Assembly (NCBI GenBank): GCA_030696345.1
Contig: JAUYSK010000015.1
Coordinates: 1-64,000, forward strand
Direction of reading: 5' to 3'
Length of the DNA stretch: 64,000 bases
DNA from: Azonexus sp.
Lineage (GTDB): Bacteria; Pseudomonadota; Gammaproteobacteria; Burkholderiales; Rhodocyclaceae
Part shown: positions 1,111-59,477 of the stretch, piece by piece
Layout: each line of letters begins with the position of its first letter
How positions within the stretch are numbered: the first letter of the stretch is position 1
Notes under the pieces: generated by a model
Database searches by the model: none
Seen by the model: only the letters and a program-made list of their open reading frames with translations
What the model was told of the DNA's origin: nothing
Made by a program: the position numbers and the translations under genes

Positions 1111-1143
1111 TGCTGCGGTGGACCGCGTAAACCTTCGATTTTC
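1111..1143 (+). repeat. Uptake-signal-like motif, site 1
   Basis: The core TGCTGCGGTGGAC lies at 1111-1123. It is followed by an AAA tract at +6 and an ATTTT tract at +15 (counted from the base after the core). It sits between the lysS start and the upstream cupin gene, so coding constraint does not explain it. Site 1 of the dispersed family described in the findings. Confidence 0.7.
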
Positions 1144-1176
1144 GCCGATTTGGGCGTTCAGGGAAAGCGCGCAGCC

Positions 1177-1503
1177 TCAGTTGGCGGCGTAATGAATGGC
1201 CAGCCAGACGGTTTTCTGTTCCGGGTGCGTCCATTCGACACGGTGCCGGCGGTGCGGGGCGATCTCGACGAAGTCACCGGCGTGCAGCTGGCGAGGCACT
1301 TCTTCATCGGCAAAGCGCAGGCTGGCTTCACCCTGAACGACATAGACCCATTCGCCCTCGGCCTGGTCGTACCAGTAATCCGGCGGACTGGCCTGGCCGC
1401 TGGAAACGATGCGTTCGATGCGCAGGCCGGGCCGGGAAAGAAGTTCGGTGAATTCTTCCTGATCAGGCATTTCCGGCAGTTGGTCAAGCAGGTTGGCAAG
1501 CAT
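1177..1503 (-). CDS. Small single-domain cupin protein
   Basis: This 108-residue protein has one cupin fold. The first motif region is around residues 45-65 (GEWVYVVQGEASLRF) and the second is LHAGDFVEIAPHRRHRVEWT with metal-ligand-type histidines. Small stand-alone cupins bind a metal or small ligand and their functions vary, so no reaction can be assigned. The ATG at 1503 lies 2 bases after the stop of the upstream 418-residue gene and has GGGAG about 8 bases upstream. It is probably co-transcribed with prfB and lysS. Confidence 0.85.
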   Translation of the reverse strand: MLANLLDQLPEMPDQEEFTELLSRPGLRIERIVSSGQASPPDYWYDQAEGEWVYVVQGEASLRFADEEVPRQLHAGDFVEIAPHRRHRVEWTHPEQKTVWLAIHYAAN

Positions 1504-1505
1504 GC

Positions 1506-2762
1506 TCAGGACTCCCGGGCGGGGCGGTAAAGCGGTAGCGCGAAAAGGCGGCGCTCGATTTCGCCGAATATTTTTTGATAGGCCGGGCTGCCGGGGCCAC
1601 CGAAGCGCAGGCGGAATTCCTTTTCGTGCAGGAATTCCGGCAGGTCGGCGAGGGCAGGGGCCAGATCGGCATCGGAAAACCGGCTGTCGAGCAGACGATT
1701 CAGAGGCGCCGGCCGGCTTACGATCAGTTCGCCGAAGGCCGTCCCGGCGCGGTCTGCCGCCAGGTCGGCAAAGGAGAAGCCGCTGCCATGACGCGCGTCG
1801 TTCAGTTCCTTGTAGAGACCGATCGCGTCGGCAATCGGCTCGCCGGCCCAGGCGGCCAGCGTGGCCGAAATGATGAAGTGCTGGGCGCTGTCGTAGCGTC
1901 CGTGCAGGCTCAGCATGACCGGGCGTGGGCGAGGCCAGTTGGCGGCTTCGGGAATCAGCGAGGCGAGGTCTTTCTCGGCCAGATAGGCGGCCAGTATGAA
2001 GAGGGCAGCACGGCGATTTTCCCGCTGGTCGTCGCCGTCAATGCTGAGCATCGGGCCGAGGACTTCCGGCAGCACTACCTTGGCGCCCGACGCTTTGTGG
2101 TCAAGCAGGCCGGCCAGTGTTTCCTGGGCCGAGCGGAAGCGCACCAGATCAGCCGGATTGACCGCAATCGAGCGGGCGCGTTCGAGCAATGCCGGTTCCC
2201 AGACGTAGCCGACGATGACGCGTCGACGTGCCGTGTCAAATTTCAGTTCGCGAATGGCGTGGCGGGCCAGATTCCATTCCTTGTCGTAGCCGGCAAGGCG
2301 AATTCCCGAGGCGAGGATCAGTTCAAGCAGCGCCGGGGGAACGGGCAGGCTGCCGATTCTGGCGCTGGCAATGCGTGGTTCGCCTTCGGCTTCCTGCAGC
2401 GTGGCGCGCAGGTTGAGAAAATGTTCGCCGGGCAGCAGCGGCGGGCGAAGGGTCAGGCGGATTTCGGCCGATTTTTCGCCCATGACCAGCGCACCGCGAC
2501 CATGCAGGAAGCGCGTCGCGATGTAATTGACGCCCTCGTCGATCAATGGTGCCGGAATGGCGGTGCGCCGGGCTTCTCCGGCGCGCAGGCGACGCGGGTC
2601 ATTGGTGTCGAACAGCCAGCGGGCCTGGGCCACCGAGTTGGGTGAAATGGTTTCGCTGCGGCTGACCAGCGGCTGGCTGTCGAGCGCCAGCAGCAACAGC
2701 CCGCCGGCGGCCAGCACGAGCAGTAGCAGCGTGCCGGCCAGCCAGGCCAGAAGGCGTTTCAC
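1506..2762 (-). CDS. Conserved hypothetical protein with N-terminal membrane anchor
   Basis: A 418-residue protein that I do not recognise as a named family. It has one strongly hydrophobic helix at residues 4-27 (LLAWLAGTLLLLVLAAGGLLLL), so it is probably anchored in the inner membrane with the rest in the periplasm. The remainder is soluble, rich in charged residues and lacks an obvious catalytic motif. The start is a GTG at 2762, 6 bases after the prfB stop, which implies translation coupled to prfB. An HGRYDSAQHF segment near residue 285 and a KELNDARHGSGFSF segment near residue 320 are the most distinctive stretches. Confidence 0.8.
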   Translation of the reverse strand: MKRLLAWLAGTLLLLVLAAGGLLLLALDSQPLVSRSETISPNSVAQARWLFDTNDPRRLRAGEARRTAIPAPLIDEGVNYIATRFLHGRGALVMGEKSAEIRLTLRPPLLPGEHFLNLRATLQEAEGEPRIASARIGSLPVPPALLELILASGIRLAGYDKEWNLARHAIRELKFDTARRRVIVGYVWEPALLERARSIAVNPADLVRFRSAQETLAGLLDHKASGAKVVLPEVLGPMLSIDGDDQRENRRAALFILAAYLAEKDLASLIPEAANWPRPRPVMLSLHGRYDSAQHFIISATLAAWAGEPIADAIGLYKELNDARHGSGFSFADLAADRAGTAFGELIVSRPAPLNRLLDSRFSDADLAPALADLPEFLHEKEFRLRFGGPGSPAYQKIFGEIERRLFALPLYRPARES

Positions 2763-2768
2763 GACGGC

Positions 2769-3873
2769 TTAAACACCCTGCTTCAGACTGGCCTCGATGA
2801 ACGGATCGAGATCGCCGTCGAGCACACCCTGGGTGTTGCCGGTTTCGTGGTTGGTGCGCAGATCCTTGATACGGCTCTGGTCGAGCACGTAGGAGCGGAT
2901 CTGGTGGCCCCAGCCGATGTCGGACTTGGCGTCTTCGAGCTTCTGCTGTTCGGCCTGCTGTTTGCGCAGCTCGAATTCGTAGATGCGGGCGCGCAGCATT
3001 TGCCAGGCTTCGTCGCGGTTGCGGTGCTGCGAACGGTCGTTCTGGCACTGGACGACGATGCCGGTCGGGACGTGGGTGAGACGCACGGCGGAGTCGGTCT
3101 TGTTGATGTGCTGACCGCCGGCACCGGAGGCGCGGTAGGTGTCGGTACGGACATCGGACGGATTGATGTTGATCTCGATCGAATCATCGACTTCGGGGAA
3201 GACGAAGATGCTGGTGAACGAGGTGTGGCGGCGGGCAGCCGAGTCGAACGGCGATTTGCGGACCAGCCGGTGGATGCCGGTTTCGGTGCGCAGCGTGCCG
3301 TAGGCGTAATCGCCCGTGAATTTGATGGTGGCGCCCTTGATGCCGGCGACTTCACCTTCGGATTCTTCCATGACTTCCACGGTGAACCCTTTTTTCTCGC
3401 CAAATTTCAAATACATGCGCAACAGCATCGAGGCCCAGTCCTGGGCTTCGGTGCCGCCGGCGCCGGCCTGGATTTCCAGGAAGCAGGGGCTCGGGTCCAT
3501 CGGGTTGTTGAACATGCGGCGGAATTCGAGGGCGGCAACCCTGGCTTCCAGCGAAGCGTTATCGGCCTCGACGGAGAGCAGCGTCTCTTCATCGCCATCT
3601 TCCTTGCCCATGTCGAACAATTCGCGGCCATCGTCGAGGCCGGCCTGGACTTCTTCCAGCACCAGCACGATGTTTTCCAGCGATTTCTTCTCGCGCCCGA
3701 GTTCCTGGGCGCGCTTGGCGTCGTCCCAGATCTTCGGGTCTTCCATCTCCTGCGTCAGGAGGGTCAGGCGCTCGCGTTTCTGATCGTAGTCAAAGATACC
3801 TCCGCAGCTCGGCGGCGCGCTGCGCCAGATCGTCGAGCTTGTTGGAAATGCTGTTGATGTGTTCGGCTTCCAT
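2769..3873 (-). CDS. prfB: Peptide chain release factor 2 (programmed +1 frameshift)
   Basis: RF2 recognises UGA and UAA stop codons and triggers peptide release. Translation starts at ATG 3873, reads 27 codons ending RRYL, meets an in-frame UGA (3792-3790), and resumes in the +1 frame as DYDQ. The total is 367 residues, matching the usual RF2 length. The second frame carries the stop-codon-reading tripeptide SPF ([12 protein letters not shown]) and the catalytic GGQ motif ([15 protein letters not shown]). It heads a minus-strand operon with an unknown gene, a cupin and lysS. Annotating only the downstream frame would lose the first 27 residues. Confidence 0.97.
3789..3803 (-). promoter_or_regulatory. 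prfB programmed frameshift signal
   Basis: On the minus strand the order is GGAGG (3803-3799), a 3-base spacer TAT, the slippery codon CTT, then the stop UGA followed by C. This is the classical RF2 autoregulatory site: the internal Shine-Dalgarno helix and the weak UGA-C context push the ribosome +1 when RF2 is scarce. Confidence 0.95.
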
Positions 3874-4089
3874 GATCGTGCTTTCGGCTACTTGAAAACC
3901 CACCATTATACCGGTGCCAGTGCTGGCATCGTCATGCAGCATTTGTTCTAAATTTTCCTTGCCTCTAATGGCATATTTCGGCGCTAAATGGGCGTAGAAT
4001 GGCGTTGTTGCGGTGCAGCAACCGGCGTCCAGGGAGGGCGTCGCCCGCCGCGTGCTTCCAGCACGCAGCTCGTAAAAGCAGGAATAATA

Positions 4090-7699
<3,610 letters not shown>

Positions 7700-7707
<8 letters not shown>

Positions 7708-8710: not shown

Positions 8711-8866
8711 AAAATCAACAAAATTAATGACAAATGGAATATGTCGGATTTTTTTACAGTTTTAGATAATTTCTCAGGCTGTCATATAATTATTTATTAA
8801 AAACAAACAGTTGGTGGACTGGCATCTATATTGCTCTTAGGTTTGCAACTATATTGGAGGTTCACC

Positions 8867-9643: not shown

Positions 9644-9661
9644 TCGTATTTTTTATAATTC

Positions 9662-9686
9662 TCGGCCCGAAAGGGCCGATTTTTTT
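9662..9686 (+). terminator. Rho-independent terminator of the PEP-CTERM gene
   Basis: A 7-bp stem (TCGGCCC / GGGCCGA) with a GAAA tetraloop is followed directly by a run of seven T, 19 bases after the stop codon. Confidence 0.92.
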
Positions 9687-9978
9687 GGCTATCAAGATTC
9701 CTGTCGAGTGCCGGTAGCCTTGGTGGGGCTGGCTCTGTCTGGCGGTGTTGCACAAGGCTGATATTTCCGCTCGCCGAAATTGCCCAAAACGAAGGGTCGA
9801 CCGCAGCATTGGTTGAACGGGGCGTGAACTTCCCCCGGGAATTAGTCCTCAAGGGCTTCAAGTTCGATTTTCCATAAAGGTGCGACAATCGCTCGCACGA
9901 CAAGCCGATCAACTCTGGAGGCTTTATGGAAGGAATGGCATCGATGGCAGGTTCAGCCGCATTATCTCCGGGCAGGCT
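9687..9978 (+). other. Intergenic region between PEP-CTERM gene and aarF-like gene
   Basis: About 290 bases with no convincing gene. It holds a copy of the dispersed motif at 9776-9808 and an 18-codon leader ORF at 9926-9982 (ATG after GGAGG) whose TGA overlaps the likely GTG start of the kinase gene. The long minus-strand frame across the region is low-complexity and unsupported. Confidence 0.6.
9776..9808 (-). repeat. Uptake-signal-like motif, site 3
   Basis: On the minus strand the core TGCTGCGGTCGAC spans 9808-9796. TTTT follows at +7 and AATTTC at +15. It is intergenic. Confidence 0.75.
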
Positions 9979-15330: not shown

Positions 15331-16000
15331 ACCAATTCTGATCGCCCGAGATCTTTGCAAGGCCTTTCGCGGTGGCGGACTGGAAGTATCGGTGCTATCC
15401 GGTGTCAGCCTGGAAATTCAACCCGGCGAAACAGTCGCCATCGTTGGTGCCTCGGGTTCCGGCAAGAGTACGCTGCTGCATCTGCTGGGCGGCCTGGATT
15501 CGCCGTCGACCGGTACCGTGACACTGATGGGGCGTGATTTTTCGTCCCTGGGCGAGGTCGACCGCGGCGATTGGCGTAACCGGCATCTTGGCTTCGTTTA
15601 CCAGTTCCACCATCTGCTGGCCGAGTTCTCTGCCGTGGAAAATGTCGCCATGCCGCTGCTGATTCGTCGGGTCGAGCGTGCATCAGCCCTCGAAAAGGCG
15701 GCTGAAATGCTTGCTGCCGTCGGTCTTGGGCATCGCCTGGAACACCGCCCCGGCGAGCTTTCCGGCGGCGAACGCCAGCGCGCGGCAATTGCCCGGGCGA
15801 TGGTCAGCGAACCTTCCTGTCTGCTGGCCGATGAGCCGACCGGCAATCTGGACAGCAATACGGCCGGGATTGTTTTCGACTTGCTGATACAGCGCGTTCG
15901 CATGCAGCAAGCCAGTCTGGTCATGGTGACGCATGATCATCGCCTGGCGGATCGCGCCGACCGGATCTTGAACCTGAACGACGGCAGTCTGGGCGGCTAA
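15323..16000 (+). CDS. lolD: Lipoprotein-releasing ABC transporter ATPase
   Basis: The 225-residue ATPase that powers lipoprotein release by the LolC/E permease. Walker A is GASGSGKST near residue 43, the signature is LSGGERQR, Walker B is [11 protein letters not shown], and the H-loop is in VMVTHDHR. The ATG at 15323 lies inside the end of lolC (8-base overlap); 27 upstream in-frame codons are just lolC sequence in another frame. The 3' end overlaps the converging DUF2062 gene by 4 bases. Confidence 0.97.
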
Positions 16001-16784: not shown

Positions 16785-19103
16785 ATGCGTCTGAATATTC
16801 TTGCTTTCGCCGCTGGCGTTTTGTTGCTGCAGATGCAGCCGGAACTGCCTGTGTCGGGGCTTTGGGCGCTGGGCGGGGCTTTGCTGGTTTTGCCGCGCTG
16901 GCGTTGGTCGGGCTGGCCGGCCAGGCTTCTTGCCATTGTCGGGTGTTGCGCGCTGGGTTTTGCCTGGGCTGGTTGGCGGGCCGACATCCGCGTGTCCGAA
17001 AACCTGGCGGCGGAATGGGAGGGGCGCGACATTGAGGTGATCGGCGTCGTTGCCACGCTGCCGCAGGATTTCAGCAACGGTACGCGCTTTGAATTTGCCC
17101 TTGAAACGGCGTTGACCGCAGGAGTGTCTGTGCCGCAGCACATCATGCTTTCCTGGTATCAGGGGCGGCGCGATGGCGAGGCATTCGAGCGCCTGCCGGT
17201 TCGCCCCGGCGAGCGCTGGCGCTTTACCGTGCGCCTGAAGCGGCCACACGGCAACGCCAATCCCGGTGGCTTCGATTACGAAGTCTGGCTGCTCGAACAC
17301 GATATCCGGGCCACTGGCTACATTCGCCCGAACCCGGCACAACGCCTGAGCGAGATGGTCTGGCAACCGGAATATGTCATCGAGCGCCTGCGTTACCTGG
17401 TGCGCGCCCGTTACGCCGAAGTGCTGCCGTCAGATAGCTATCCGTGGGCAGGCATTCTGGTGGCGCTGGCGGTCGGCGATCAGAAGGCGATACAAGGTGA
17501 TCTGTGGACGACCTTCAACCGCACTGGCACGACACATCTGATGAGTATTTCAGGATTGCACGTGACGATGGTTGCCGCCCTCTTCGGCTGGCTGGTCAGT
17601 TTTGGCTGGCGGCGGGCCCCAAAACTCGCGCTGCGGCTGCCGGCACAGAAAGCCGGTCTGCTTGCCGCCTGTGTGGCTGCCTTGCTCTATACCTTGCTGG
17701 CCGGTTTTGCCGTGCCAGCCCAGCGCACCCTTTACATGCTGCTGGTAGCGGCGCTGGCCATGCTGTCAGGACGGATCGTTGCGCCCAGCCGGACGCTTTC
17801 GCTCGCCCTGCTGGTGGTTCTGCTTATTGATCCGTGGGCGGTATTGGCTGCTGGTTTCTGGCTCTCCTTCGGCGCCGTTGGCGCCTTGCTCTATGTTGGC
17901 TCAGCCGAGGTGGGGCAAGGGCGGGGCTGGCGACAAAGGGCTCGGGCCTGGGGTGTCGTGCAATGGGCCGCAACGCTCGCTTCGTTGCCAGTTCTGCTGC
18001 TGGTCTTTCAGCAGTTCTCGCTGGTTTCGCCATTGGCCAATGCCGTGGCTATCCCGGTAATCAGTTTTATTGTCACGCCGCTCGCCCTGCTCGGGGCGGT
18101 GGTGCCGTGGTGGCCGATTCTGGAACTGGCGCATTGGGTTATGGACTGGCTGATGCTGTTTCTGAACTGGGGTGCTGTCTGGCCGGTCTGGCAGGCGCCG
18201 GCACCACCATTGTGGGCCGGGGTGGCGGCCGGGCTGGGGGTGGCGATCTGTCTATTGCCACGCGGCATGCCGGGGCGGTTGCTTGGGCTATTTCTGCTGC
18301 TTCCAGCCTTGTTCTGGCCGGTTGATAAACCCGCCGAGGGCGAAGCCTGGATTACCGTGCTCGATGTCGGCCAGGGGTTGGCGTCGGTGGTCCGAACCCG
18401 CGAGCACACGCTGATTTACGATCCGGGCCCGCTCTACAGTGCCGAGTCGGATGCCGGGCAGCGTGTGGTGGTGCCCTATCTGCGGATGCTCGGCCTCAGT
18501 CGTGTCGACATGCTGATGGTGACACATCGCGACAGCGACCATTCCGGCGGAACGATTTCGGTGCAATCGGCGCTGGCCGTTGGCGAACTCCGTTCGTCAG
18601 TGCCCGAGATCGGCGGCGAACCTTGTCTGGCTGGGCAACGCTGGGTCTGGGACGGGGTGATTTTCGAGGTGTTGCACCCGACGGCGGAGAATGCTGCGGT
18701 CAACGGCAAATCCAACCATCTTTCCTGCGTCTTGCGTGTCGATGCCGGTGGTCGGCGGATGTTGCTGACCTCCGATATTGAAGCGCCGGATGAAGTCGCC
18801 ATGCTGGCGCGCTACCCCGGGCAACTGGCGGCAGATATTCTGCTGGTGCCGCACCATGGCTCGAAGACCTCATCGACGCCGGCATTCTTGCAGGCGGTGG
18901 GGGCCCGAGAGGCGGTGATCCCAGTTGGTTACCGCAACCGCTTCGGCCATCCAAAGGCAGAAGTGGTGGCGCGTTACGAGGCTTCAGGAATGATACTCTG
19001 GCGAACCGATCGCGATGGGGCGGTGACGGTGCGGCTGGGGGCTGATGGCATGAAACTCTCGGCATGGCGGCAAGTGCATCGCCGCTACTGGCACGAGCGG
19101 TGA
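16785..19103 (+). CDS. comEC: DNA internalisation competence protein ComEC/Rec2
   Basis: The inner-membrane channel that moves single-stranded DNA into the cytoplasm during natural transformation. The 772-residue protein has the full three-part layout: an N-terminal DUF4131/OB-like region (1-200), the multi-helix Competence domain (about 210-500, with HLMSISGLHVTMVAALFGWL), and a C-terminal metallo-beta-lactamase-like domain (MVTHRDSDHSGG, then ILLVPHHGSKTSS). It looks intact, which supports competence. It contains a copy of the uptake-like motif at 18692-18724. The start ATG lies only 7 bases after the MITE-like element, so that element may supply or disrupt its leader. Confidence 0.95.
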   Translation: MRLNILAFAAGVLLLQMQPELPVSGLWALGGALLVLPRWRWSGWPARLLAIVGCCALGFAWAGWRADIRVSENLAAEWEGRDIEVIGVVATLPQDFSNGTRFEFALETALTAGVSVPQHIMLSWYQGRRDGEAFERLPVRPGERWRFTVRLKRPHGNANPGGFDYEVWLLEHDIRATGYIRPNPAQRLSEMVWQPEYVIERLRYLVRARYAEVLPSDSYPWAGILVALAVGDQKAIQGDLWTTFNRTGTTHLMSISGLHVTMVAALFGWLVSFGWRRAPKLALRLPAQKAGLLAACVAALLYTLLAGFAVPAQRTLYMLLVAALAMLSGRIVAPSRTLSLALLVVLLIDPWAVLAAGFWLSFGAVGALLYVGSAEVGQGRGWRQRARAWGVVQWAATLASLPVLLLVFQQFSLVSPLANAVAIPVISFIVTPLALLGAVVPWWPILELAHWVMDWLMLFLNWGAVWPVWQAPAPPLWAGVAAGLGVAICLLPRGMPGRLLGLFLLLPALFWPVDKPAEGEAWITVLDVGQGLASVVRTREHTLIYDPGPLYSAESDAGQRVVVPYLRMLGLSRVDMLMVTHRDSDHSGGTISVQSALAVGELRSSVPEIGGEPCLAGQRWVWDGVIFEVLHPTAENAAVNGKSNHLSCVLRVDAGGRRMLLTSDIEAPDEVAMLARYPGQLAADILLVPHHGSKTSSTPAFLQAVGAREAVIPVGYRNRFGHPKAEVVARYEASGMILWRTDRDGAVTVRLGADGMKLSAWRQVHRRYWHER
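18692..18724 (+). repeat. Uptake-signal-like motif, site 5
   Basis: The core TGCTGCGGTCAAC lies at 18692-18704, with AAAT at +4 and ATCTTTCC at +14. It is inside comEC, encoding AAVN. Confidence 0.7.
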
Positions 19104-22037: not shown

Positions 22038-22790
22038 TCAGGCCTGCTGGCGGAATAGCGGGTCTTGCCGGTAGTAGCGCCTTAGCAGGTCGTAGAGCGC
22101 CGGATATTCGTTTTGGACCACCGCCGGCAGCTCGAAGAAGCTTTCAGACAACACCGCAAAGAATTCGGCAGGTTCATCGCTGGCATACGGGTCGATGATC
22201 GTTTCCTCGGCATCGTCGACACGCCGGCAAAAGTCTTCATAGGCTGCCACAAAGACCTGCGCCCATTCCTCTTCGGTGATACCTGAATGCAAGGCCGGCA
22301 TGCCATCGGCCTGGCCATTCAGCATGTCCAGCTTGTGGGCAAATTCGTGGATGACGACGTTGTAACCGTCACCAGCCATCTGGACATCGCGCCAGGAAAC
22401 CAGCAAGGGGCCGCCTTCCCAGGCTTCGCCGGCGAGCACGTCATCGTATTCATGAACAACACCGTCCTCGTCCTCAATCTGCCGGGAAACAACGAACTCA
22501 TCGGGATAAACGACGATGCCGACCCACTCGCGATAAGCGGTGAGGCCCAGATTCAGGATCGGCAGGCAGCCTTGCGCAGCAATGGAGACACAGATTTCAT
22601 CGCTAAGTGCCAGGCCGCCGGCGGTGCTGAATTCCTTTTCGGCAAGGAAAGCTTCGGCCAGCGATTTCAGGCTTTTTTTCTCGTCCACCGTAAGACTCGC
22701 CAGGAAAGGCAGGGCGGCGACTGTTTTCTCCCACAACTCGTCCGGAATCAAGGGGGATTTATCGCGTTTGAACCAGTCGAAGAGAGCCAT
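22038..22790 (-). CDS. mtfA: Zinc-dependent M90 peptidase, MtfA-like
   Basis: A 250-residue protein of the MtfA (M90) family. In E. coli MtfA binds the Mlc repressor and so affects glucose-PTS expression, and it has Zn-dependent aminopeptidase activity. The HExxH motif is visible in VVIHEFAHKLDMLNG, with the downstream DEPAEFFAVLSESFFE glutamate region. The ATG at 22790 was chosen because the family starts MxLFDWFKR; it overlaps the EamA stop by one base (TGATG), so it is coupled to that gene. Confidence 0.92.
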   Translation of the reverse strand: MALFDWFKRDKSPLIPDELWEKTVAALPFLASLTVDEKKSLKSLAEAFLAEKEFSTAGGLALSDEICVSIAAQGCLPILNLGLTAYREWVGIVVYPDEFVVSRQIEDEDGVVHEYDDVLAGEAWEGGPLLVSWRDVQMAGDGYNVVIHEFAHKLDMLNGQADGMPALHSGITEEEWAQVFVAAYEDFCRRVDDAEETIIDPYASDEPAEFFAVLSESFFELPAVVQNEYPALYDLLRRYYRQDPLFRQQA

Positions 22791-30805: not shown

Positions 30806-31975
30806 GTGAAACATCCCAATCGTGATTGTTTGAATTCTGTATCAGCCGCCGGGCTGGCATTTCTTGTCGCCGTTTCCATGTTTGGTTGCAAGGACAACAA
30901 GGCTCCCCCGGTAGCAACGCCACCCGAAGTCATCGTTCAGACCATAACCCCGCAAAACACGCCCCTGTCGGTCGAGATAGTTTCTGAAATCAAGGCCTTC
31001 CGCGAGGTGGAGTTGCGGCCACGCGTTTCCGGCCTGATCATCAAGCAGAGTTTCCTGCCCGGTCAGAAGGTCAAGGAAGGGGATCTGCTCTTTTCCATCG
31101 ACCCGCGAGCCTACGACGAGGCCGTGATCGATGCCCAGGCCAAGCTGGCCGAGGCGGAAGCCATTCTCGCCCGGGCGCGCCAGGATGTCTCCCGCTACAT
31201 TCCCTTGTTGCCGGATAACGCCATTCCCCGTCAGACCTACGATCAGGCTGTCGCCTTCGAACAACAGAATGTAGCCATCGTCCAGGCCCGCCGTGCCTCT
31301 CTGGAAAAGACCCGCCTTGATCGCTCCTATGCCGAGGTTCGCTCGCCGGTTTCCGGTCAGATCGGCCTGCAAAAGGTTGAAGTCGGCGCCTTGGCCTCGG
31401 CCGGGCAGAGTGTGCTAGCGACGGTATCGACGCTTGACCCGGTCGTCGCCTACTTCAGTATTGCCGAGCTCGACTATCTCCACTATCAGAAAAAATTCCG
31501 CAAAAGCGGCCAGAGCACGGAGAGTCCGATTGAACTGATTCTGGCTGACAACAGCGTTTACCCAGAAAAAGGTCGTGCCGACTTTATCGACCGTGCCCTC
31601 AATCCGGCAACCGGCACGCTGACCTTGCGCGCAGTCTTCCCGAATCCGAATGGCCTGCTGCGTCCGGGAATGAACACCCGGGTCCGCATCGTTTATGAAG
31701 TGGCCCAGAATGCCCTGCTGATCCCTCAGAAAGCCGTTACCGAAATGCTCGGCAAACAGTTTGCCACGGTGGTGATCGCTGGCGACAAGGTTGAGCAGCG
31801 GCCGATCACTACCGGCAACCGGATTGGTGACATGTGGCTGGTCGAAAGTGGGCTGCAGGCCGGCGAACGCATCGTGGTCGAGGGATTGCAAAAGGCTCGC
31901 CCGGGCAGCATCGTCAAGCCGGTCGCTCCGGCAAGGCCTGCTGCGGTGGACGCCAAAAATCCGGCAAAAAGCTAA
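30806..31975 (+). CDS. RND efflux periplasmic adaptor (MexA/AcrA type)
   Basis: The membrane-fusion subunit of a tripartite drug efflux pump. The 389-residue lipoprotein has lipobox MFGC (Cys28), a lipoyl domain (VELRPRVSGLIIKQSFLPGQKVKEG), the alpha-hairpin around residues 105-175, and beta-barrel and membrane-proximal domains (NPNGLLRPGMNTRVRI). It starts at GTG 30806 after GGAGA. Nine bases separate it from the permease gene. No TetR- or MarR-type regulator is next to the operon, so local control is not evident. Confidence 0.95.
   Translation: MKHPNRDCLNSVSAAGLAFLVAVSMFGCKDNKAPPVATPPEVIVQTITPQNTPLSVEIVSEIKAFREVELRPRVSGLIIKQSFLPGQKVKEGDLLFSIDPRAYDEAVIDAQAKLAEAEAILARARQDVSRYIPLLPDNAIPRQTYDQAVAFEQQNVAIVQARRASLEKTRLDRSYAEVRSPVSGQIGLQKVEVGALASAGQSVLATVSTLDPVVAYFSIAELDYLHYQKKFRKSGQSTESPIELILADNSVYPEKGRADFIDRALNPATGTLTLRAVFPNPNGLLRPGMNTRVRIVYEVAQNALLIPQKAVTEMLGKQFATVVIAGDKVEQRPITTGNRIGDMWLVESGLQAGERIVVEGLQKARPGSIVKPVAPARPAAVDAKNPAKS
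31939..31971 (+). repeat. Uptake-signal-like motif, site 6
   Basis: The core TGCTGCGGTGGAC lies at 31939-31951, with AAAAA at +4 and AAAAA at +15. It is in the last codons of the adaptor gene, encoding AAVDAKNPAKS. Confidence 0.7.
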
Positions 31976-38770: not shown

Positions 38771-38803
38771 TGCTGCGGTCGACGGTCAAAAAAGGCACTT
38801 TTC
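38771..38803 (+). repeat. Uptake-signal-like motif, site 7
   Basis: The core TGCTGCGGTCGAC lies at 38771-38783, with AAAAAA at +5 and TTTTC at +16. It is intergenic, between the divergent ppk1 and acuI genes. This is one of the best copies. Confidence 0.75.
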
Positions 38804-41288: not shown

Positions 41289-42577
41289 GGCAGGCTTTCG
41301 GCGGCAATCCGGCGCAGCGCGGCGCGTTCCAGCTTGCCGCCGGCAGAGCGCGGCAGATGGTCGAGAAAGAGCATTTTTCGGGGCAGGGCGGCGGCTGGCA
41401 GGTGTTGCCGGGCGTGGGCGAGCAGCGCATCTGTTTTGGCATCGCCGACGATCAGTGCCACCACCAGATCGCCCCAGATTGGGTCGGTTTGCCCGGTCAC
41501 GGCCACATCGTGGACGCCGGGGCAGGCAGACAGGCAGGATTCGATTTCCAGCGGATGGACGTTGCGGCCACCGCTGATCAGCATGTCATCGGCCCGGCCG
41601 GTGATGGTGAGGCTGCCTTCTACATCAATGCTGCCGAGATCGCTGGTCATCAGCCAGCCATCGGCTTCAAGGCCGCCGCCGTTGAGGTAGCCGAGCATGA
41701 CTTGCGGGCCGCGAAGGCAGAGTCGACCATCCTCACCCAGCCGGATTTCGTGGCCGGGCATCGGCTTGCCGACCAGTCCCCGATGCCACGGGCCGTCAGC
41801 GGGGGTATGGGTGGCGAATTGGGCGGCAGTCTCCGTCATGCCGTAGCTCGGATAGAGTGGCCAGCCAGCGCTGCAGGCCTTCTCGTAGAGTGGCATCGAG
41901 AGCGCGGCACCGCCGATCAGCGTGACGCGCAGGCTGGGCGGCGGCCTGATGCCGAGTTCAAGCAACTGGGCCAGCATGGCCGGTACCAGTGAAATATGGC
42001 TGACCGGATGACGGGCGAGATTGGCGGCGACGGCTTGGGCAGCAAAGCCGTCATGCAGCAACACACCCGCCTTGGCTCGGGCACAGCGCCAGAGTATGGA
42101 CTGGCCGCCGATATGGTAGAGCGGCAGGCAGTTCAGCCAGAGGTCGCCGGGACCAAGCGGCAGGCGCTCGTTCGAGGCTGCGGCAGCGGCGTCGAGTTGG
42201 ACATTGCCAAGCAAAACCGGACGTGGCTGGCCCTCGCTGCCGCTGGTCGAGATGATCAGGGCAACATCAGTCAGAGGTGCGGGGCCATTTGGCTGAGCTT
42301 CGTTGTACCCATGGTGTGTTTCATGAATGCTGCGGTCGACCGGCCAAAATGGCCGATTTCCAAGGTTGCAGGCATAGGCATGGCGGGCCAGGGCAAGGCT
42401 GTCCCCGGCCTTGATCAGAGGTTCGGGGGCGTTGCCAATTTGTTCGGCCAGGGTAAGCGTATCGGCCAGCAGATCGGCAAAAGTCCACGTGGCTCCTTTG
42501 CTGATCAAGGCGACTGAATCCCGATGGCTGCTTGCCGCGTTGCGCAGGTGGTGAGCGAGTGAGGTATTGGCCGCCAT
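41285..42577 (-). CDS. menE: AMP-dependent ligase, probable o-succinylbenzoate-CoA ligase
   Basis: A 430-residue acyl-adenylate/CoA ligase with STSGSEGQPRPVLL (P-loop, A3), YGMTETAAQF (A5), GWLMTSDLG (A7) and GRADDMLISGGRNVHPLEIE (A8), ending SAGGKLERAALRR (A10 lysine). The compact size and the 4-base overlap with isochorismate synthase point to MenE. No menD, menC, menB or menA is in the window, so the assignment leans on context. ATG 42577 is chosen; the 36 upstream in-frame codons overlap a TATAAT box. A dispersed motif copy lies at 42328-42360. Confidence 0.82.
   Translation of the reverse strand: MAANTSLAHHLRNAASSHRDSVALISKGATWTFADLLADTLTLAEQIGNAPEPLIKAGDSLALARHAYACNLGNRPFWPVDRSIHETHHGYNEAQPNGPAPLTDVALIISTSGSEGQPRPVLLGNVQLDAAAAASNERLPLGPGDLWLNCLPLYHIGGQSILWRCARAKAGVLLHDGFAAQAVAANLARHPVSHISLVPAMLAQLLELGIRPPPSLRVTLIGGAALSMPLYEKACSAGWPLYPSYGMTETAAQFATHTPADGPWHRGLVGKPMPGHEIRLGEDGRLCLRGPQVMLGYLNGGGLEADGWLMTSDLGSIDVEGSLTITGRADDMLISGGRNVHPLEIESCLSACPGVHDVAVTGQTDPIWGDLVVALIVGDAKTDALLAHARQHLPAAALPRKMLFLDHLPRSAGGKLERAALRRIAAESLP
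42328..42360 (+). repeat. Uptake-signal-like motif, site 8
   Basis: The core TGCTGCGGTCGAC lies at 42328-42340, with AAAAT at +6 and ATTTCC at +16. It is antisense within menE. A nested CGGCC/GGCCG palindrome surrounds the first A tract. Confidence 0.75.
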
Positions 42578-45729: not shown

Positions 45730-47076
45730 TCAGGCGTCCGGAGTTGTCGGCCATTGCACGGTAACGACCAGGCCAGTACTCATATTGGATTCGCCCAGTT
45801 CCAGGCGGGCGCTGTGCAGTTCAGCGATTCGCGCGACGATGGCCAGGCCCAGGCCGCTGCCCGGTTGCCCGCCCTGATCGAGGCGATGGAAGCGCCGCAG
45901 CACGGATTTGCGTTCATCTTGCGGAATGCCGGGGCCGCTGTCGCTGACGGCAAGTTGGCAACGTCCGTCGATGCGACTCAGGCTGACGCGGACCTGTCCA
46001 CCTTCCGGGGTGTAGCGAACCGCGTTATCAACGAGATTGCGGATCAAAACCCGCAGCCATTCGGTCTGGCCAATCACCTTGCAGCCCGTCGCTGCCTCAA
46101 GATCGAAATCTATATTTTTGCCGAGGATCAATGGTCCGAGGTCGGCGCAGACGGATTCGGCCTGGCTGGCGAGATCGACCGGCTGCGGATCGGGCAGGCC
46201 GGATTCGGGATCGAGCCGGGCCAGTTGCAGCATCTGGTCGACGAGGTGAGAGGCGCGGGTCAGGCCGCTTTGCAACTGATTCAGCGAACGGTCGCGTTCG
46301 TCGCTGTCGCGGGCACGTTGGGCGACCTGCAGTTGTGCCTGTAGCGCGGCGAGTGGGGTGCGCAGTTCGTGAGCGGCATCGGCCGTGAAGCGGCGTTCGG
46401 CTTCAAGTGCGGTATCGACGCGCTGGAAAAGGCCGTTCAGTGCTTCCAGCATGGTCCGGATTTCTTCCGGGGCGGTGGCCGGGGTCAGCGGCTGCAACTG
46501 TTGCGGGGCGCGGCTGGCGATCTGCCGGGCGATGCCGTCGAGCGAGGCCAGGCCTTGCCGGGTGGCGAGCCAGACCCAGAGGCCGATCAGCGGCAGGCCG
46601 AAGAGAGCGGGGAAGAGCAGGCGCCAGGCGATGTGGCCGATCAGTTCGTCGCGGATGTGGTGGTTTTCGCTGACCTGAACCTGAATGCTGTGTTCGTCAT
46701 TCCATTGGCTGAAATGGCGCCAGTGGCCATCGTCTTCGCGGGTTTCGGAAAAGCCGGTTGCTGCGGTCAACGGTGTTTTTGGGGCATTTTTCGAACGCAT
46801 CAGCAGCTTGCCGTCGGCTCGCCAGATCTGGAAGCGCAGGCGGCGCTGGTATTTGTGGGTGATGTCGCCGAGGTCTTCGATGTCGTCGCCTCCATCGTGG
46901 CTGGCCAGCGCGAGCAGCGTCTGGGCCGCCTGACCAAGCTGGGCGTCGAATAGTTCATCAACTTCGTGGTGGGCGTCGATGTAGCTGAAGATCATCGTCG
47001 CCAGCCAGGCGGCGGCAACGCCGCCAAGCAACAGGCCGAGCAGGCGGCGACGCAGCGAAAACCAGGCGGTGGTCAC
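45730..47076 (-). CDS. QseC/PmrB-like sensor histidine kinase
   Basis: A 448-residue membrane kinase. Two transmembrane helices (about 9-30 and 153-172) flank a periplasmic sensor. A HAMP-like linker, a HisKA domain with ADAAHELRTPLAALQ (phospho-His) and HATPase boxes (IRNLVDNAVRY, VSDSGPGIP, GSGLGLAIV) follow. It overlaps its response-regulator gene by 4 bases. Both lie downstream of the SHP/diheme cytochrome genes, so it probably senses a redox or envelope signal that controls them. Confidence 0.93.
   Translation of the reverse strand: MTTAWFSLRRRLLGLLLGGVAAAWLATMIFSYIDAHHEVDELFDAQLGQAAQTLLALASHDGGDDIEDLGDITHKYQRRLRFQIWRADGKLLMRSKNAPKTPLTAATGFSETREDDGHWRHFSQWNDEHSIQVQVSENHHIRDELIGHIAWRLLFPALFGLPLIGLWVWLATRQGLASLDGIARQIASRAPQQLQPLTPATAPEEIRTMLEALNGLFQRVDTALEAERRFTADAAHELRTPLAALQAQLQVAQRARDSDERDRSLNQLQSGLTRASHLVDQMLQLARLDPESGLPDPQPVDLASQAESVCADLGPLILGKNIDFDLEAATGCKVIGQTEWLRVLIRNLVDNAVRYTPEGGQVRVSLSRIDGRCQLAVSDSGPGIPQDERKSVLRRFHRLDQGGQPGSGLGLAIVARIAELHSARLELGESNMSTGLVVTVQWPTTPDA
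46759..46792 (+). repeat. Uptake-signal-like motif, site 9
   Basis: The core TGCTGCGGTCAAC lies at 46759-46771, with TTTTT at +5 and ATTTTTC at +15. It is antisense within the sensor kinase gene. Confidence 0.72.
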
Positions 47077-47729: not shown

Positions 47730-47741
47730 GGCAGGATTCTA

Positions 47742-48347: not shown

Positions 48348-48350
48348 GAC

Positions 48351-48812: not shown

Positions 48813-48813
48813 C

Positions 48814-51943: not shown

Positions 51944-52008
51944 GGCCGCCCCGGGTTTTATCTGAATATAATAAAGATAGCACTTTTGCTATATTGTGTG
52001 TTAGTAAT

Positions 52009-52920: not shown

Positions 52921-53067
52921 GGTGAAAGGATACGCCGATCAGGCCCTCGTTTCTGTACGCCTGGCAGTATATGCCGTGTCAATTTTGGCAAAAAATACAC
53001 TGCTTGATCCGCATGAATACTGCGTGCAGACTGAAGCCTTGAATTTGCCCACCGAGAGAGGCACGCA

Positions 53068-53325
53068 ATGAACGAAGCCCAACTGAAAAATGCAATAACC
53101 TCACCCTGGCCATTCTTTGGTGTCAGTCCCCATGGCGATGTGCTGGCCAGATATGTTCCCTACGGCCCGGTATTCCGCTGGAGCTGGAATCAGATGATAC
53201 CGATGCCGGTGCAAGGCAGCGATCTGGTCTGGCTACTGCATGCTGCGGCAGAAGAAGGTCACTCGATTGGCGACACCGAGGTCGTCAAGAGCAGCAAGAA
53301 AACGCCGAAAAAATCAGGTTCATGA
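53068..53325 (+). CDS. Small conserved-looking protein of unknown function
   Basis: An 85-residue protein that I do not recognise. It has an aromatic/proline-rich core (SPWPFFGVSP, RYVPYGPVFRWSWNQMIPMP) and a basic tail (SSKKTPKKSGS). There is no signal peptide or membrane helix. GAGAGAGG lies about 8 bases before the ATG, and codon use resembles that of the neighbours, which supports a real gene. It stands alone between converging and diverging genes. Confidence 0.6.
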   Translation: MNEAQLKNAITSPWPFFGVSPHGDVLARYVPYGPVFRWSWNQMIPMPVQGSDLVWLLHAAAEEGHSIGDTEVVKSSKKTPKKSGS

Positions 53326-53418
53326 TTTATTCGGCGTGGGCTGATTAGACAAGTAAAGCCTGTTTCCCTTGACTTGAGTGCTGCTCATGGTGCGAGAGCG
53401 CAATACCGCGTCAAGCGA

Positions 53419-56049: not shown

Positions 56050-56185
56050 CAGGATAAGTTTAGCGAGCTTGAAACTGGAAGCCGCAGCGGCTCTTTACGT
56101 TGAGTGGCCGTTGCGATGGAATTGATTTCGAATTGCGTAGTCAGAGATGCTTCAGCTTTCTCACCATCATTTGAAGGAGTTTTTC

Positions 56186-56689
56186 ATGAGCAATACCGTA
56201 ACGCTGGGCGGCAATCCGATCGAAGTTGCCGGTATTTTTCCGGCCAAGGGTACTCAGGCGCCAAATTTCTCGCTGGTTGGCAAGGATCTGGCCGATGTCA
56301 CGCTGGCTAGCCTGGCCGGCATGCGCAAGGTGCTGAACATTTTCCCGAGTATCGATACGCCGACCTGCGCGACTTCGGTACGCAAGTTCAACCAGTCGGC
56401 CAATGCGCTGGCCAATACCGTGGTGCTGTGCATCTCGGCCGATCTGCCTTTCGCGCAAAGCCGTTTCTGCGGCGCCGAAGGTCTGGCCAATGTCCGGACG
56501 CTCTCCACCATGCGCGGTCGCGAATTCCTCGAGGCCTATGGAGTCGCGATCAAGAGCGGGCCGCTGGCTGGTGTTTCGGCTCGGGCCGTGGTCGTGCTCG
56601 ACGAGAACAACAAGGTTTTGCACAGCGAACTGGTTTCTGAAATCAAGAATGAACCGGACTACGACTCGGCGCTGGCTGCCCTGGCCTGA
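56186..56689 (+). CDS. tpx: Thiol peroxidase (atypical 2-Cys peroxiredoxin)
   Basis: A 167-residue thioredoxin-dependent peroxidase that reduces lipid and hydrogen peroxides. The peroxidatic cysteine is in [14 protein letters not shown] (near 60) and the resolving cysteine in SRFCGAEGL (near 94), the Tpx arrangement. ATG 56186 has GAAGGAG upstream; 13 earlier in-frame codons are not supported. Confidence 0.96.
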
Positions 56690-56699
56690 TCTGTTGAAA

Positions 56700-56725
56700 C
56701 GCCCGGATTTCCGATGATCCGGGCG
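56700..56725 (+). terminator. Hairpin after tpx
   Basis: A perfect 9-bp stem CGCCCGGAT / ATCCGGGCG with an 8-base loop lies 10 bases after the tpx stop. It has no U-run, so it may be a weak terminator or an mRNA 3' stabiliser. Confidence 0.55.
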
Positions 56726-56782
56726 GATTCCCCGTAAAATACGCCCTTTGTTTGCCGGCTGGCCCGGATAAGGTTTGATTGC

Positions 56783-58105
56783 ATGACTATTCCACAAAAA
56801 GTGCCGACCGTCGGCTTCGTTTCCCTCGGTTGCCCGAAAGCCAGTTCCGACGCCGAGCGCATCCTGACCAAGCTGCGCGCCGAGGGTTACGAGATTTCGC
56901 CGAGCTACGAGAACTCCGATCTGGTCATTGTCAATACCTGCGGCTTCATCGATGCCGCCGTCGAAGAGTCGCTCGACGCCATTGGTGAGGCACTCAACGA
57001 AAACGGTAAGGTCATCGTTACCGGCTGCCTCGGCGCCAAAGGCGACATCGTGCAATCAACGCACCCATCCGTGCTCGCCGTCACCGGCCCGCACGCTGCC
57101 GACGAGGTCATGGGCTACGTCCATGCCCATCTGCCGAAACCGCACGACCCGTATTCCGACCTGGTTCCGCCGCAGGGTGTGCGCCTGACGCCGGATCACT
57201 TTGCTTACCTGAAGATTTCCGAAGGCTGCAACCATAGCTGCACCTTCTGCATCATCCCGTCGCTGCGCGGCCCGCTGGTTTCCCGTCCGGTTGGTGATGT
57301 GCTGGCCGAAGCGGAAAACCTGGCTCGTGCCGGCGTCAAGGAAATTCTCGTTATTTCGCAGGACACCAGTGCCTACGGTGTCGATCTCAAGTACCGCACC
57401 GCCTTCTGGGGCGGCAAGCCGGTCAAGTCGCGGCTGAAGGAATTGTGCGAGGCGCTGGCCAGTTTCGGCATCTGGGTTCGCCTGCATTACGTCTACCCTT
57501 ACCCCTCGGTCGATGACGTCATTCCGCTGATGGCCGAGGGCAAGATCCTGCCTTACCTCGATGTGCCTTTCCAGCATGCCAGCCCGAAGATTCTCAAGGC
57601 GATGAAGCGCCCGGCCTCGGCCGAGAACACGCTGGAGCGCATCGCCAAGTGGCGTTCGATCTGCCCCGAAATTGTCATCCGCTCGACCTTCATTACCGGC
57701 TTCCCCGGCGAAACTGACGAGGATTTCGATCAGCTGATCCAGTTTCTCGAAGATGCCAAACTCGACCGCGTCGGCGCTTTTGCCTACTCACCGGTCGAGG
57801 GCGCCAAGGCCAACGAGCTCGCTGGCTTGCCGCCGGAAGATGTGCGCGAAGACCGCCGGCGCTGGCTGATGCAGGTGCAGGAAGATATCAGCGCCGAGAA
57901 AATGGCCGCCAAGATTGACAGCGTGATCGAAGTGCTGGTCGATGCTGTCGATGAAGAGGGGACGATTGCCCGTTCCAAGGCGGATGCACCGGAAATCGAT
58001 GGCCTCGTTTACATTGACGGGCTGTTCGATGCGCAGCCGGGTGACTTCCTGCAAGTCAAAGTCATCGATGCCGACCACCATGACCTCTACGCCGAGCCTG
58101 TCTGA
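56783..58105 (+). CDS. rimO: Ribosomal protein S12 methylthiotransferase
   Basis: A radical-SAM enzyme that adds a methylthio group to Asp of ribosomal protein uS12. The 440-residue protein has the N-terminal UPF0004 domain ([16 protein letters not shown]), the radical-SAM cluster motif CNHSCTFC, and a C-terminal TRAM domain. Length is normal. It starts at ATG 56783 with AAGG upstream. Its end overlaps the FAD oxidase start by about 26 bases. Confidence 0.96.
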
Positions 58106-59477
58106 ACGGCTGGCCAGTATCGTCGGGGCAGCCAATGTCCTGACCGATCCGGCCGATCTGGCGCCTTTCCTGACCGACTGGCGTGGTCGCTATCATGGTC
58201 GGGCGCAATGTGTCGTCCGGCCGGCGAATACCGGTGAAGTCGCCGCCGTGGTCAAGGCCTGTGCCGAAGCTGGCGCGCCCGTTGTGCCACAGGGCGGCAA
58301 TACCAGCCATTGCGGTGCGGCGACGCCGGATGAGGCTGGCAGGGCGGTCGTTCTCAGCTTGTCGCGGCTGAACCGCATTGCTGCGGTCGACGCCCAAAAC
58401 AACACGATTTCCGTTGAGGCCGGCTGCACGCTGGCCGCTGTTCAGGCAGCGGCGCGTGCTGCCGACCGACTGTTTCCGCTCTCGTTGGCGGCAGAGGGCA
58501 GTTGCCAGATTGGCGGCAATTTGTCGACCAATGCCGGCGGTGTGCAGGTGTTGCGCTACGGCAATACGCGGGAGCTGACGCTCGGCCTTGAAGTCGTGCT
58601 GCCCAACGGCGACATCTGGGATGGTCGGCGCGGCCTGCGCAAGGACAACACCGGCTATGACCTGAAGCAGCTATTCATCGGCGCCGAAGGCACGCTCGGC
58701 ATCATCACCGGTGCCGTGCTCAAGCTCTTTCCGCTGCCCAAAACGCAAGTAACCTGCTGGTTGAATGTCGCAACGCCGAGTGCTGCGGTCGACCTGCTTA
58801 ATCGGGCAAAAAGCGTTTTCGATGCGCAGCTGACAGCCTTCGAGCTGATTTCCGAAACTGCGCTGGGTTTGGTGCTGAAGAATATTCCCGACTCGGTTCG
58901 CCCGACGGCGAGCAGCGCCTGGACCATCCTCGCGGAGTTCAGCGATGCCGATCCGCTTGCCGTTGAAGCTTGGCTGGCAGCCCGCATCGAGGCTGGCGAA
59001 GTGGTCGATGGCGTCATCGCCCAGTCCGAAAGCCAGTCCGCAAAACTGTGGGCTTTGCGCGAGAACATTTCGGAAGCGCAGAAGATCGAAGGCGTCAGCA
59101 TCAAGCACGATATTTCGGTGCCGGTATCCCGCATTCCAGATTTCCTGACTCAGGCTGACGCGCTACTGAACGAAACCTTTCCGGGCATCCGGGTCGTGGC
59201 CTTTGGCCATGTCGGCGACGGCAATCTGCACTACAACCTGTCGAAGCCGGATGCTCAGGAAAACACGGCGTTCATTGCCAGCCAGCCGGTGGTGAATCGC
59301 CTCGTCCATGATGCAGTGCACGCGCTGAATGGCTCAATTTCCGCTGAACACGGGATTGGCCAGCTGAAGCGCGAGGAATTGCTGCGTTACAAGAGTCCGG
59401 TTGAAATGGCGCTGATGCGCTCGATCAAGCAGGCGCTTGATCCTCAGGGTTTGATGAATCCGGGGAAGATTCTTTAA
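58080..59477 (+). CDS. FAD-linked oxidase (GlcD/D-lactate dehydrogenase type)
   Basis: A 465-residue FAD-binding protein of the GlcD/Dld2 family, oxidising a 2-hydroxyacid such as glycolate, D-lactate or D-2-hydroxyglutarate. The FAD segment [46 protein letters not shown] and the C-terminal [10 protein letters not shown] and [12 protein letters not shown] motifs are complete. ATG 58080 is inside the end of rimO; earlier in-frame codons belong to rimO sequence. Two copies of the dispersed motif lie in this gene, 400 bases apart. Confidence 0.9.
58379..58411 (+). repeat. Uptake-signal-like motif, site 10
   Basis: The core TGCTGCGGTCGAC lies at 58379-58391, with AAAA at +5 and ATTTCC at +16. 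In-gene, encoding AAVDAQN. Confidence 0.75.
58781..58813 (+). repeat. Uptake-signal-like motif, site 11
   Basis: The core TGCTGCGGTCGAC lies at 58781-58793, with TTAAT at +5 and AAAAA at +15. In-gene, encoding AAVDLLN. Confidence 0.75.

What the first reader, a model, noticed from the sequence alone, without database searches (positions are those of the whole stretch)
1111..58813. Dispersed oriented motif with the architecture of a DNA uptake signal sequence
Seen: 11 strong copies plus 2 degenerate ones of TGCTGCGGTSRAC in 64 kb. Core coordinates are 1111+, 5262-, 9808-, 13589-, 18692+, 31939+, 38771+, 42328+, 46759+, 58379+, 58781+, with degenerate copies at 11691- and 48615-. Two more features go with the core. 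Most copies have an A/T tract 4-7 bases after it, and nearly all have a second A/T tract at +14 to +17, usually ending in C. The core is often preceded by AA, AT or TT. Copies lie on both strands, in at least three intergenic regions and in unrelated genes and frames, so protein sequence does not explain them. A 13-mer with two two-fold positions should occur far less than once here by chance. Known: the Pasteurellaceae uptake sequence has the core AAGTGCGGT followed by two A/T tracts spaced by about a helical turn. The shared TGCGGT and tract spacing are striking. Inference: a lineage-specific DNA uptake sequence, or the site of a genome-wide DNA-binding protein. I know of no described uptake sequence in Rhodocyclales.
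Basis: partly seen in the sequence, partly recalled or inferred. Interest (0 to 1): 0.92.

Follow-up and report, generated by a model that had tools for sequence, protein, structure and literature searches.

The report
Possible third family of uptake tags
Hundreds of copies of one short, directional DNA tag are scattered through the genomes of about half the species of one bacterial genus, and they look like the 'take up my own DNA' tags known so far from two other bacterial families; uptake itself has not been tested.

Summary
TGCTGCGGTSRAC occurs 10 times exactly in the window (shuffles: 0) and 524 times in the genome (246 and 278 per strand; reversed control 0). The full signal is a constant CGGTSRAC with dialect-specific bases 5' and, downstream, a weaker and a stronger A/T tract about 10 bp apart.

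In the window's genus (nearest named relatives: Dechloromonas spp.), 40 of 76 genomes carry 138-486 signals per Mb and 36 carry 5-61. At least two dialects exist. All 321 other-genus genomes of the family search and all 393 of the order search are at background.

Sites lie in genes and gaps on both strands, without polarity in the stretches seen. Exact cores in genes exceed synonymous shuffles about 70-fold. Sites arise by substitution. Perfect copies exceed singly mismatched ones. ComEC lies in the window.

Best reading: a DNA uptake signal in a third family, built like the Pasteurellaceae USS. Uptake was not tested, the receptor is unknown, and the ComP-like minor pilin shows no clear link to dialect.

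The parts
1111..1142 (+). uptake-signal candidate: exact core + second A/T tract, inside a class II tRNA synthetase gene on the other strand
5231..5262 (-). exact core + second A/T tract, inside a pyruvate:ferredoxin oxidoreductase-like gene (3988-7707)
9777..9808 (-). exact core + second A/T tract, intergenic
18692..18704 (+). exact core without a full second tract, inside comEC
31939..31970 (+). exact core + second tract, end of an HlyD/CusB-family gene
38771..38802 (+). exact core + second tract, intergenic between divergent genes
42328..42359 (+). exact core + second tract, inside an AMP-binding enzyme gene on the other strand
46759..46790 (+). exact core + second tract, inside a sensor histidine kinase gene on the other strand
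58379..58410 (+). exact core + second tract, intergenic between convergent genes (the right-hand one weakly predicted)
58781..58812 (+). exact core + second tract, in a weakly predicted gene
4635..4666 (+). one-mismatch core (TGCTACGGTCAAC) + second tract
17092..17123 (-). one-mismatch core + second tract, inside comEC, opposite strand
3380..3406 (+). short core CGGTSRAC + second tract, no TGCTG
15538..15569 (-). two-mismatch core + second tract
22664..22690 (-). short core CGGTSRAC + second tract, no TGCTG
63669..63695 (-). short core CGGTSRAC + second tract, no TGCTG
16785..19103 (+). comEC, inner-membrane DNA channel of natural transformation (PF03772 210.7 bits, plus DUF4131 and Lactamase_B)

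Best explanation
The motif is a DNA uptake signal. During natural transformation a surface DNA receptor, probably on or near a type IV pilus, prefers DNA that carries the directional core CGGTSRAC with dialect-specific bases 5' (TGCTG in this genome). Downstream A/T tracts, the second the more constant, probably help the helix bend so that it can be drawn through the outer membrane, as proposed for the Haemophilus signal. Related cells' DNA is then taken up preferentially, passes ComEC as a single strand and recombines. Because alleles that by chance carry the signal are transferred more often, it accumulates by point mutation all over the genome. Shown here: abundance, architecture, dialects, genus restriction, substitution origin, maintenance, lack of polarity in the stretches seen, presence of competence genes. 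Inferred: surface recognition, uptake bias, accumulation by biased transformation, the role of the tracts.
For: 524 exact cores v 0 reversed. Core plus downstream A/T tracts. CGGTSRAC-N15-WWWW is bimodal in 76 genus genomes: 40 at 138-486/Mb and 36 at 5-61/Mb; reversed controls 7-47 per genome. The 321 other-genus genomes of the family search hold 1-55 and the 393 of the order search 0-55 (7 genomes are in both). Dialects share the octamer and the second-tract position: CACGGTCRAC in G147 (1243 copies) and G250 (1302), TGCTACGGT in G245. In 504 kb, 66 exact cores: 46 in genes, 23 with and 23 against transcription; 20 outside v 9.1 expected. Strand order near random over 240 and 140 kb. 66 perfect v 49 singly mismatched copies, control 0 v 5. 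Orthologous sites: kept in 710 of 1534 comparisons between signal-rich genomes, e.g. 58% at about 85% DNA identity where matched windows keep 22%; in signal-poor partners 8 of 1133 (comparisons not independent). Signal-poor partners show aligned near-misses and no site-sized insertion. Overlapping inverted pairs CGGTCGACCG are intergenic in 40 of 76 cases v 85 of 449 single sites. ComEC in 71, DprA in 75 and a ComP_DUS-family pilin in 70 of 76 genomes.
Against: No uptake or transformation data. The first A/T tract is weak in several dialects (A/T about 49-56% at its place in G201, G062, G204). Competence genes do not predict the signal. Rich v poor: ComEC 39/40 v 32/36, ComP_DUS pilin 39/40 v 31/36, GspH pilin 39/40 v 30/36, DprA 39/40 v 36/36; genomes without a match are mostly incomplete assemblies. 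Signal-rich G254 (485/Mb, 99% complete) has no DprA match and a split comEC; G209 and G230 also have interrupted comEC. No receptor identified: the ComP-like pilin is not sorted by signal state, its link to dialect is weak or nil, and G201 and G202 share the signal but have very different minor pilins. Density here (about one signal per 5 kb) is below the near one per kb given for Haemophilus and Neisseria (PMC1626085, passage). Spacing is no more even than random. Compositionally odd genes have only slightly fewer sites (18.9 v 21.5-29.2 per 100 kb). After re-checking the first tract and G254 I lowered confidence from 0.80 to 0.78.
Confidence: 0.78

Rival explanations
1. The motif is the binding site of an intracellular chromosome-organising or silencing protein specific to this genus, with a specificity that drifts between species.
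For: A long, asymmetric core-plus-A/T site could suit a nucleoid protein. Sites occur genome-wide and are maintained between signal-rich relatives. Competence-gene content does not predict presence, and G254 is signal-rich without a DprA match.
Against: Perfect copies outnumber singly mismatched ones, a pattern that PMC1626085 (passage) contrasts with the relaxed consensus of regulatory sites. 46 of 66 exact cores sit in coding sequence. Near-complete presence or absence between relatives at about 90% DNA identity (G205 v G208: 0 of 8 sites kept) is odd for a chromosome-maintenance site. No strand pattern in the stretches seen.
Confidence: 0.15
2. It is a polar recombination or segregation signal such as Chi or KOPS.
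For: Oriented, short, hundreds of copies.
Against: Strands are mixed: 16/22 over 240 kb with 19 runs (19.5 expected) and 12/14 over 140 kb with 19 runs (13.9 expected); mixed within single 20-kb stretches of closed genome G204. The length, the A/T tracts and the dialects do not fit.
Confidence: 0.02
3. It is a transposable or REP-like element, or part of one.
For: Many near-identical dispersed copies, sometimes as inverted pairs.
Against: Information is confined to about 3 bp before and 33 bp after the core start. Relatives align through the sites with substitutions; 4 listed sites had gaps of one to three bases, none the size of the motif. Sites lie inside genes.
Confidence: 0.01
4. It is a by-product of codon usage, protein motifs or mutation bias.
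For: In-gene copies prefer one reading frame (offset 2 in 37 of 46).
Against: Synonymous shuffles give 0.64 v 46 observed. Intergenic excess 20 v 9.1. Relatives with the same genes lack it.
Confidence: 0.01

Closest known systems
Pasteurellaceae uptake signal sequence (USS; Hin-type AAGTGCGGT, Apl-type ACAAGCGGT, with two 3' A/T segments)
   Same: Directional core followed on its 3' side by two A/T segments about one helical turn apart. Dialects differ 5' of a constant (G)CGGT. Copies in genes and gaps, both strands; arises by substitution; perfect copies exceed singly mismatched ones. TGCGGTCAA, present in the CAA form of this genome's core, is contained in the extended Hin-USS AAAGTGCGGTCAATTTT (PMC12616744, passage).
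   Different: Betaproteobacterial genus, 58-64% GC in the four genomes measured. The core continues as SRAC, so the first A/T tract lies about 13-16 bases after the C of CGGT instead of directly after the core, and it is weak in some dialects. Lower density. Patchy presence among close relatives. No uptake experiment; no known receptor.
Neisseriaceae DNA uptake sequence (DUS, GCCGTCTGAA and dialects) read by ComP
   Same: Same kind of genomic distribution, dialects and inverted pairs; ComP_DUS-family minor pilin present.
   Different: Unrelated sequence, and DUS has no flanking motifs (PMC1626085, passage). The ComP-like pilin here shows no clear link to dialect.
Chi / KOPS (recalled)
   Same: Oriented, repeated, chromosomal.
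   Different: No strand polarity in the stretches seen; longer motif; dialects.

Membership tests
Pasteurellaceae-type USS | short constant core strongly over-represented, strand-symmetric | tested here: met
   524 v 0 control, 246/278 strands
Pasteurellaceae-type USS | two A/T segments 3' of the core, about a helical turn apart | tested here: met
   In this genome and G147 tracts about 10 bp apart; the second is constant in all signal-rich genomes profiled, the first is weak in G201, G062 and G204 and lies further from the core than in Hin-USS
Pasteurellaceae-type USS | perfect copies exceed singly mismatched copies | tested here: met
   66 v 49 in 504 kb of this genome
Pasteurellaceae-type USS | sites arise by point mutation, not insertion | tested here: met
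Pasteurellaceae-type USS | core AAGTGCGGT or ACAAGCGGT itself | tested here: not met
   core is TGCTGCGGTSRAC or CACGGTCRAC; shares CGGT, at most TGCGGTCAA
Pasteurellaceae-type USS | ComN/PpdA-type minor pilin as predicted receptor | not tested
   no PpdA query was run
Neisseriaceae DUS | GCCGTCTGAA-like core with CTG, no flanking motifs | tested here: not met
   different core, tracts present
Neisseriaceae DUS | ComP receptor whose sequence follows dialect | tested here: inconclusive
   PF16732 pilin present (66.7 bits). Spearman r with dialect 0.16 for 20 genomes (93 of 2000 permutations reach it) and 0.04 for 36 (495 of 2000); the dialect measure is coarse. G201 and G202 share the signal with very different pilins
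DNA uptake sequence in the functional sense | motif-bearing DNA is taken up better by competent cells | not testable with these tools
   needs an uptake or transformation assay
DNA uptake sequence in the functional sense | organism has transformation genes | tested here: met
   ComEC in the window; ComEC 71/76, DprA 75/76 of the genus, with broken or missing genes in a few signal-rich genomes
Chi / KOPS | strand bias along replication | tested here: not met
   (partial stretches, no whole replichore)

The most novel reading that the evidence does not exclude
The signal is not just functionally parallel to the Haemophilus USS but recognised by the same kind of DNA-reading domain. The run TGCGGTCAA followed by phased A/T tracts would then be a shared recognition code that moved between, or arose twice under the same structural constraint in, Gamma- and Betaproteobacteria. 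In this genus uptake specificity switches on and off repeatedly between related species, giving a natural experiment on how self-recognition of DNA arises and is lost.
Probability: 0.25. Interest if true: 0.92.

Novelty: new variant of a known kind. Interest (0 to 1): 0.84.

Why it matters
A 2025 paper states that only Neisseriaceae and Pasteurellaceae are known to tell their own DNA from foreign DNA at uptake (PMC12616744, introduction). A third lineage, free-living as far as I recall, would show that such self-recognition evolves more than twice and outside animal hosts. It would also show that the USS layout (CGGT-type core plus phased A/T tracts) recurs, which hints at a shared mechanical need during uptake. 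Forty signal-rich and 36 signal-poor species in one genus, some of them close relatives, make the old question of how uptake sequences start, spread and vanish directly testable. It may also give a practical handle: motif-tagged DNA might transform these perchlorate-reducing and phosphate-accumulating bacteria (physiology recalled).

Tried and rejected
Receptor in the minor-pilin operon (fimU-pilV-pilW-pilX-pilY1-pilE; gene names are my reading of the order): tested because PF16732 (ComP_DUS) hits its last gene. The PilE tree mixes signal-rich and signal-poor genomes, and mean charge and length do not separate them. Some close relatives that share the signal have very different pilins: G201 v G202 97% housekeeping identity, 30-41% pilin identity; G216 v G215 94% and 22-47%. 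Other pairs keep similar ones (G244 v G245 81-85%; G210 v G215 61-81%). The fetched stretches do not always hold the whole operon, so low values in some pairs may reflect missing orthologues. Dialect distance shows r 0.16 or 0.04 with PilE distance and 0.01 with housekeeping distance. An extra FimT/GspH pilin in signal-rich genomes: not seen; most genomes have one.

Loss of competence genes in signal-poor genomes: no clear difference (tallies in the Against line). The HHH_3 search hits all 76 genomes but mixes long and short ORFs and its list was cut, so ComEA itself was not tallied.

Another motif in signal-poor genomes: no comparable k-mer in 60-140 kb each of 8 of the 36. Gapped motifs would be missed; in G201, a signal-rich genome, plain k-mers barely show the signal.

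Apparent all-plus listing in closed genome G204: taken as a listing artefact, because fetched stretches are mixed.

More even spacing than random: not seen. Solved structures: this genome's PilE matches pilins in general. The tree from IspH-LspA-IleS-RibF holds only 36 of 61 loci, the others lacking those genes in the fetched stretch; minimum 8 state changes. It may be blurred by recombination.

Thresholds for signal-rich (130/Mb or more) and poor (65/Mb or less) were set after seeing the bimodal counts. Sites are reused across pairs, so no p-value is claimed; the 70% and 95% identity bins (9 and 20 sites: 0.22 v 0.05 and 1.0 v 0.59) are small. In one search I chose 14 locus pairs by hand, mostly from the PilE tree and including named loci; one search ran all ordered pairs (36 signal-rich against 36 rich and 25 poor genomes) and kept those with 6 kb or more aligned at 70% identity or more. 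Most loci used are minor-pilin neighbourhoods, not a random genome sample. A dyad can count twice.
Full report
OBSERVATION. The window holds 10 exact copies of TGCTGCGGTSRAC on both strands (shuffles 0) and 28 copies with up to two mismatches, against 9.4 expected. The whole genome (3.96 Mb, 28 contigs) holds 246 forward and 278 reverse copies and none of the reversed pattern. In 504 kb of this genome, 46 exact cores lie in predicted genes against 0.64 +/- 0.83 after synonymous-codon shuffling.

ANATOMY. Aligning 61 exact cores shows a weak A at -2 and G at -3, the core, a G/C-rich stretch, an A/T tract at offsets 18-21, a G/C-rich stretch, and a stronger A/T tract at 27-31 followed by C at 33; beyond that the profile is nearly flat. 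In the 49 one-mismatch copies CGGT and the A of SRAC are rarely the mismatched position (0, 0, 1, 1 and 1), while the first T (11) and the second G (12) vary most. The constant part is therefore close to CGGTSRAC.

DIALECTS AND RANGE. De novo k-mer counts in same-genus genome G147 gave another form, CACGGTCRAC: 1243 copies in G147, 1302 in G250, 752 in G230 and 73 in the window's genome (control there 24). G245 favours TGCTACGGT. G201 has almost no 5' preference. The second tract keeps its offset in the signal-rich genomes profiled; the first is clear in this genome, G147 and G245 and weak in G201, G062 and G204. Counting CGGTSRAC-N15-WWWW gives, in 76 genus genomes, 40 at 138-486 per Mb and 36 at 5-61 per Mb. 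Several of the latter are slightly raised (G265 61, G242 42, G241 33 per Mb). In the family search 321 of 336 genomes belong to other genera and hold 1-55 matches. In the order search 393 of 399 lie outside the genus (7 of them also in the family search) and hold 0-55. The tool does not name the genus; the nearest named relatives of this genome's PilY1 are Dechloromonas sp. MAG-190 (76%) and Dechloromonas sp. UBA6271 (62%), order Rhodocyclales.

DISTRIBUTION IN THE GENOME. Of 66 exact cores, 46 are in genes (23 along and 23 against transcription, one frame preferred) and 20 outside against 9.1 expected. The share outside genes differs by genome: 18 of 44 generic sites in G147 (4.4 expected) but 2 of 38 in G201 (6.5 expected). 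Over loci of 36 signal-rich genomes (1.83 Mb, 525 generic sites) the overlapping inverted form CGGTCGACCG is intergenic in 40 of 76 cases and single sites in 85 of 449. Between convergent genes, which make up 17.7% of intergenic bases, lie 16 of 38 intergenic dyads and 24 of 82 intergenic single sites. That resembles the terminator use of USS/DUS pairs (PMC12616744 introduction). Strand order is near random along 240 and 140 kb.

EVOLUTION. In orthologous loci, sites of signal-rich genomes are kept in other signal-rich genomes more often than matched random windows: 0.385 v 0.102, 0.414 v 0.152, 0.58 v 0.223 and 0.833 v 0.362 at about 75, 80, 85 and 90% identity. In signal-poor genomes they are kept in 8 of 1133 comparisons, where matched windows give 0.07-0.38. 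Aligned near-misses show substitutions, with small gaps in four listed cases. So sites are gained by point mutation in signal-rich lineages and then maintained. The deficit in signal-poor genomes fits recent gain better than slow decay of old sites; I did not model this. A four-protein tree of 36 genomes needs at least 8 changes of state.

MACHINERY. ComEC is in the window (16785-19103). In the genus ComEC is found in 71 of 76 genomes, DprA in 75, a ComP_DUS-family minor pilin in 70 and a GspH/FimT-type pilin in 69. Signal-rich and signal-poor genomes do not differ clearly in these, and signal-rich G254 lacks a DprA match and has a split comEC. The minor-pilin operon is very variable and shows no clear link to dialect, so I do not name a receptor.

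WHAT IT IS. Most computable traits of an uptake sequence that I tested are met; even spacing, high density and a marked lack in odd genes are not. Intracellular binding is the only live rival. The layout is that of the Pasteurellaceae USS: core, then A/T segments on the 3' side at roughly one-turn spacing (PMC1626085, passages). TGCGGTCAA, part of this genome's most enriched 10-mer (TGCGGTCAAC), lies inside the extended Hin-USS given in PMC12616744 (passage). Here the first tract sits further from the core. By strict membership it is neither the Pasteurellaceae USS nor the Neisseriaceae DUS (different core sequence, different lineage). That it works like them is inference.

LITERATURE. PMC12616744 (abstract, introduction and passages read) says only two families are known to use such signals. 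PMC1626085, PMC7811141 and PMC3630211 were read as passages only. Searches joining uptake-sequence or competence terms with Rhodocyclales, Betaproteobacteria, Proteobacteria or Dechloromonas showed no report of this motif (open-licence PubMed Central only, listings seen). One search listed 20 of 141 papers, and the single hit (PMC3364145) was not opened, so absence is not proven.

LIMITS. Gene calls come from a simple hexamer caller. Only stretches of other genomes were read, many of them around one operon; genome-wide numbers come from pattern counts. No uptake, binding or transformation was measured.

Noticed in passing
L183:724-3533 and L184 (G230:C33); G251:C1:2218607-2251879: comEC is interrupted after the GTTHLMSI stretch by about 33 kb in G230 and, by match coordinates only, at about the same point in G251. 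In G230 the insert begins with a large serine recombinase (Resolvase, Recombinase, Zn_ribbon_recom), then a CHAT-domain protein; near its other end is a protein with a CoiA N-terminal domain. A mobile element that lands in the DNA-uptake channel may switch off transformation.
   Followed up: partly
L039:2843-10713 and orthologous loci L059-L118: The minor-pilin operon is very variable: some pairs with 94-97% housekeeping identity have pilins only 22-47% identical, while other such pairs keep 61-85%, which suggests replacement of the cassette in some lineages.
   Followed up: partly
G209:C10:856383-856889; G206:C8:1085724-1086371; G218:C1:1959178-1959913: comEC looks broken in several genus members (stop codon, partial match or split match), signal-rich (G209) and signal-poor (G206, G218) alike.
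   Followed up: no
G254 (DprA search): G254, 99% complete and signal-rich (485/Mb), is the only one of 76 genomes without a DprA-family match, and its comEC match is split.
   Followed up: no
G254 loci L100, L125-L127: GAACCCGAACC-type k-mers occur 14-15 times in 80 kb of G254, perhaps a tandem repeat.
   Followed up: no
G361 (same family, genus g19): Slight excess of CGGTSRAC-N15-WWWW (26+29 v 8+13 controls), the highest outside the genus in the family search.
   Followed up: no
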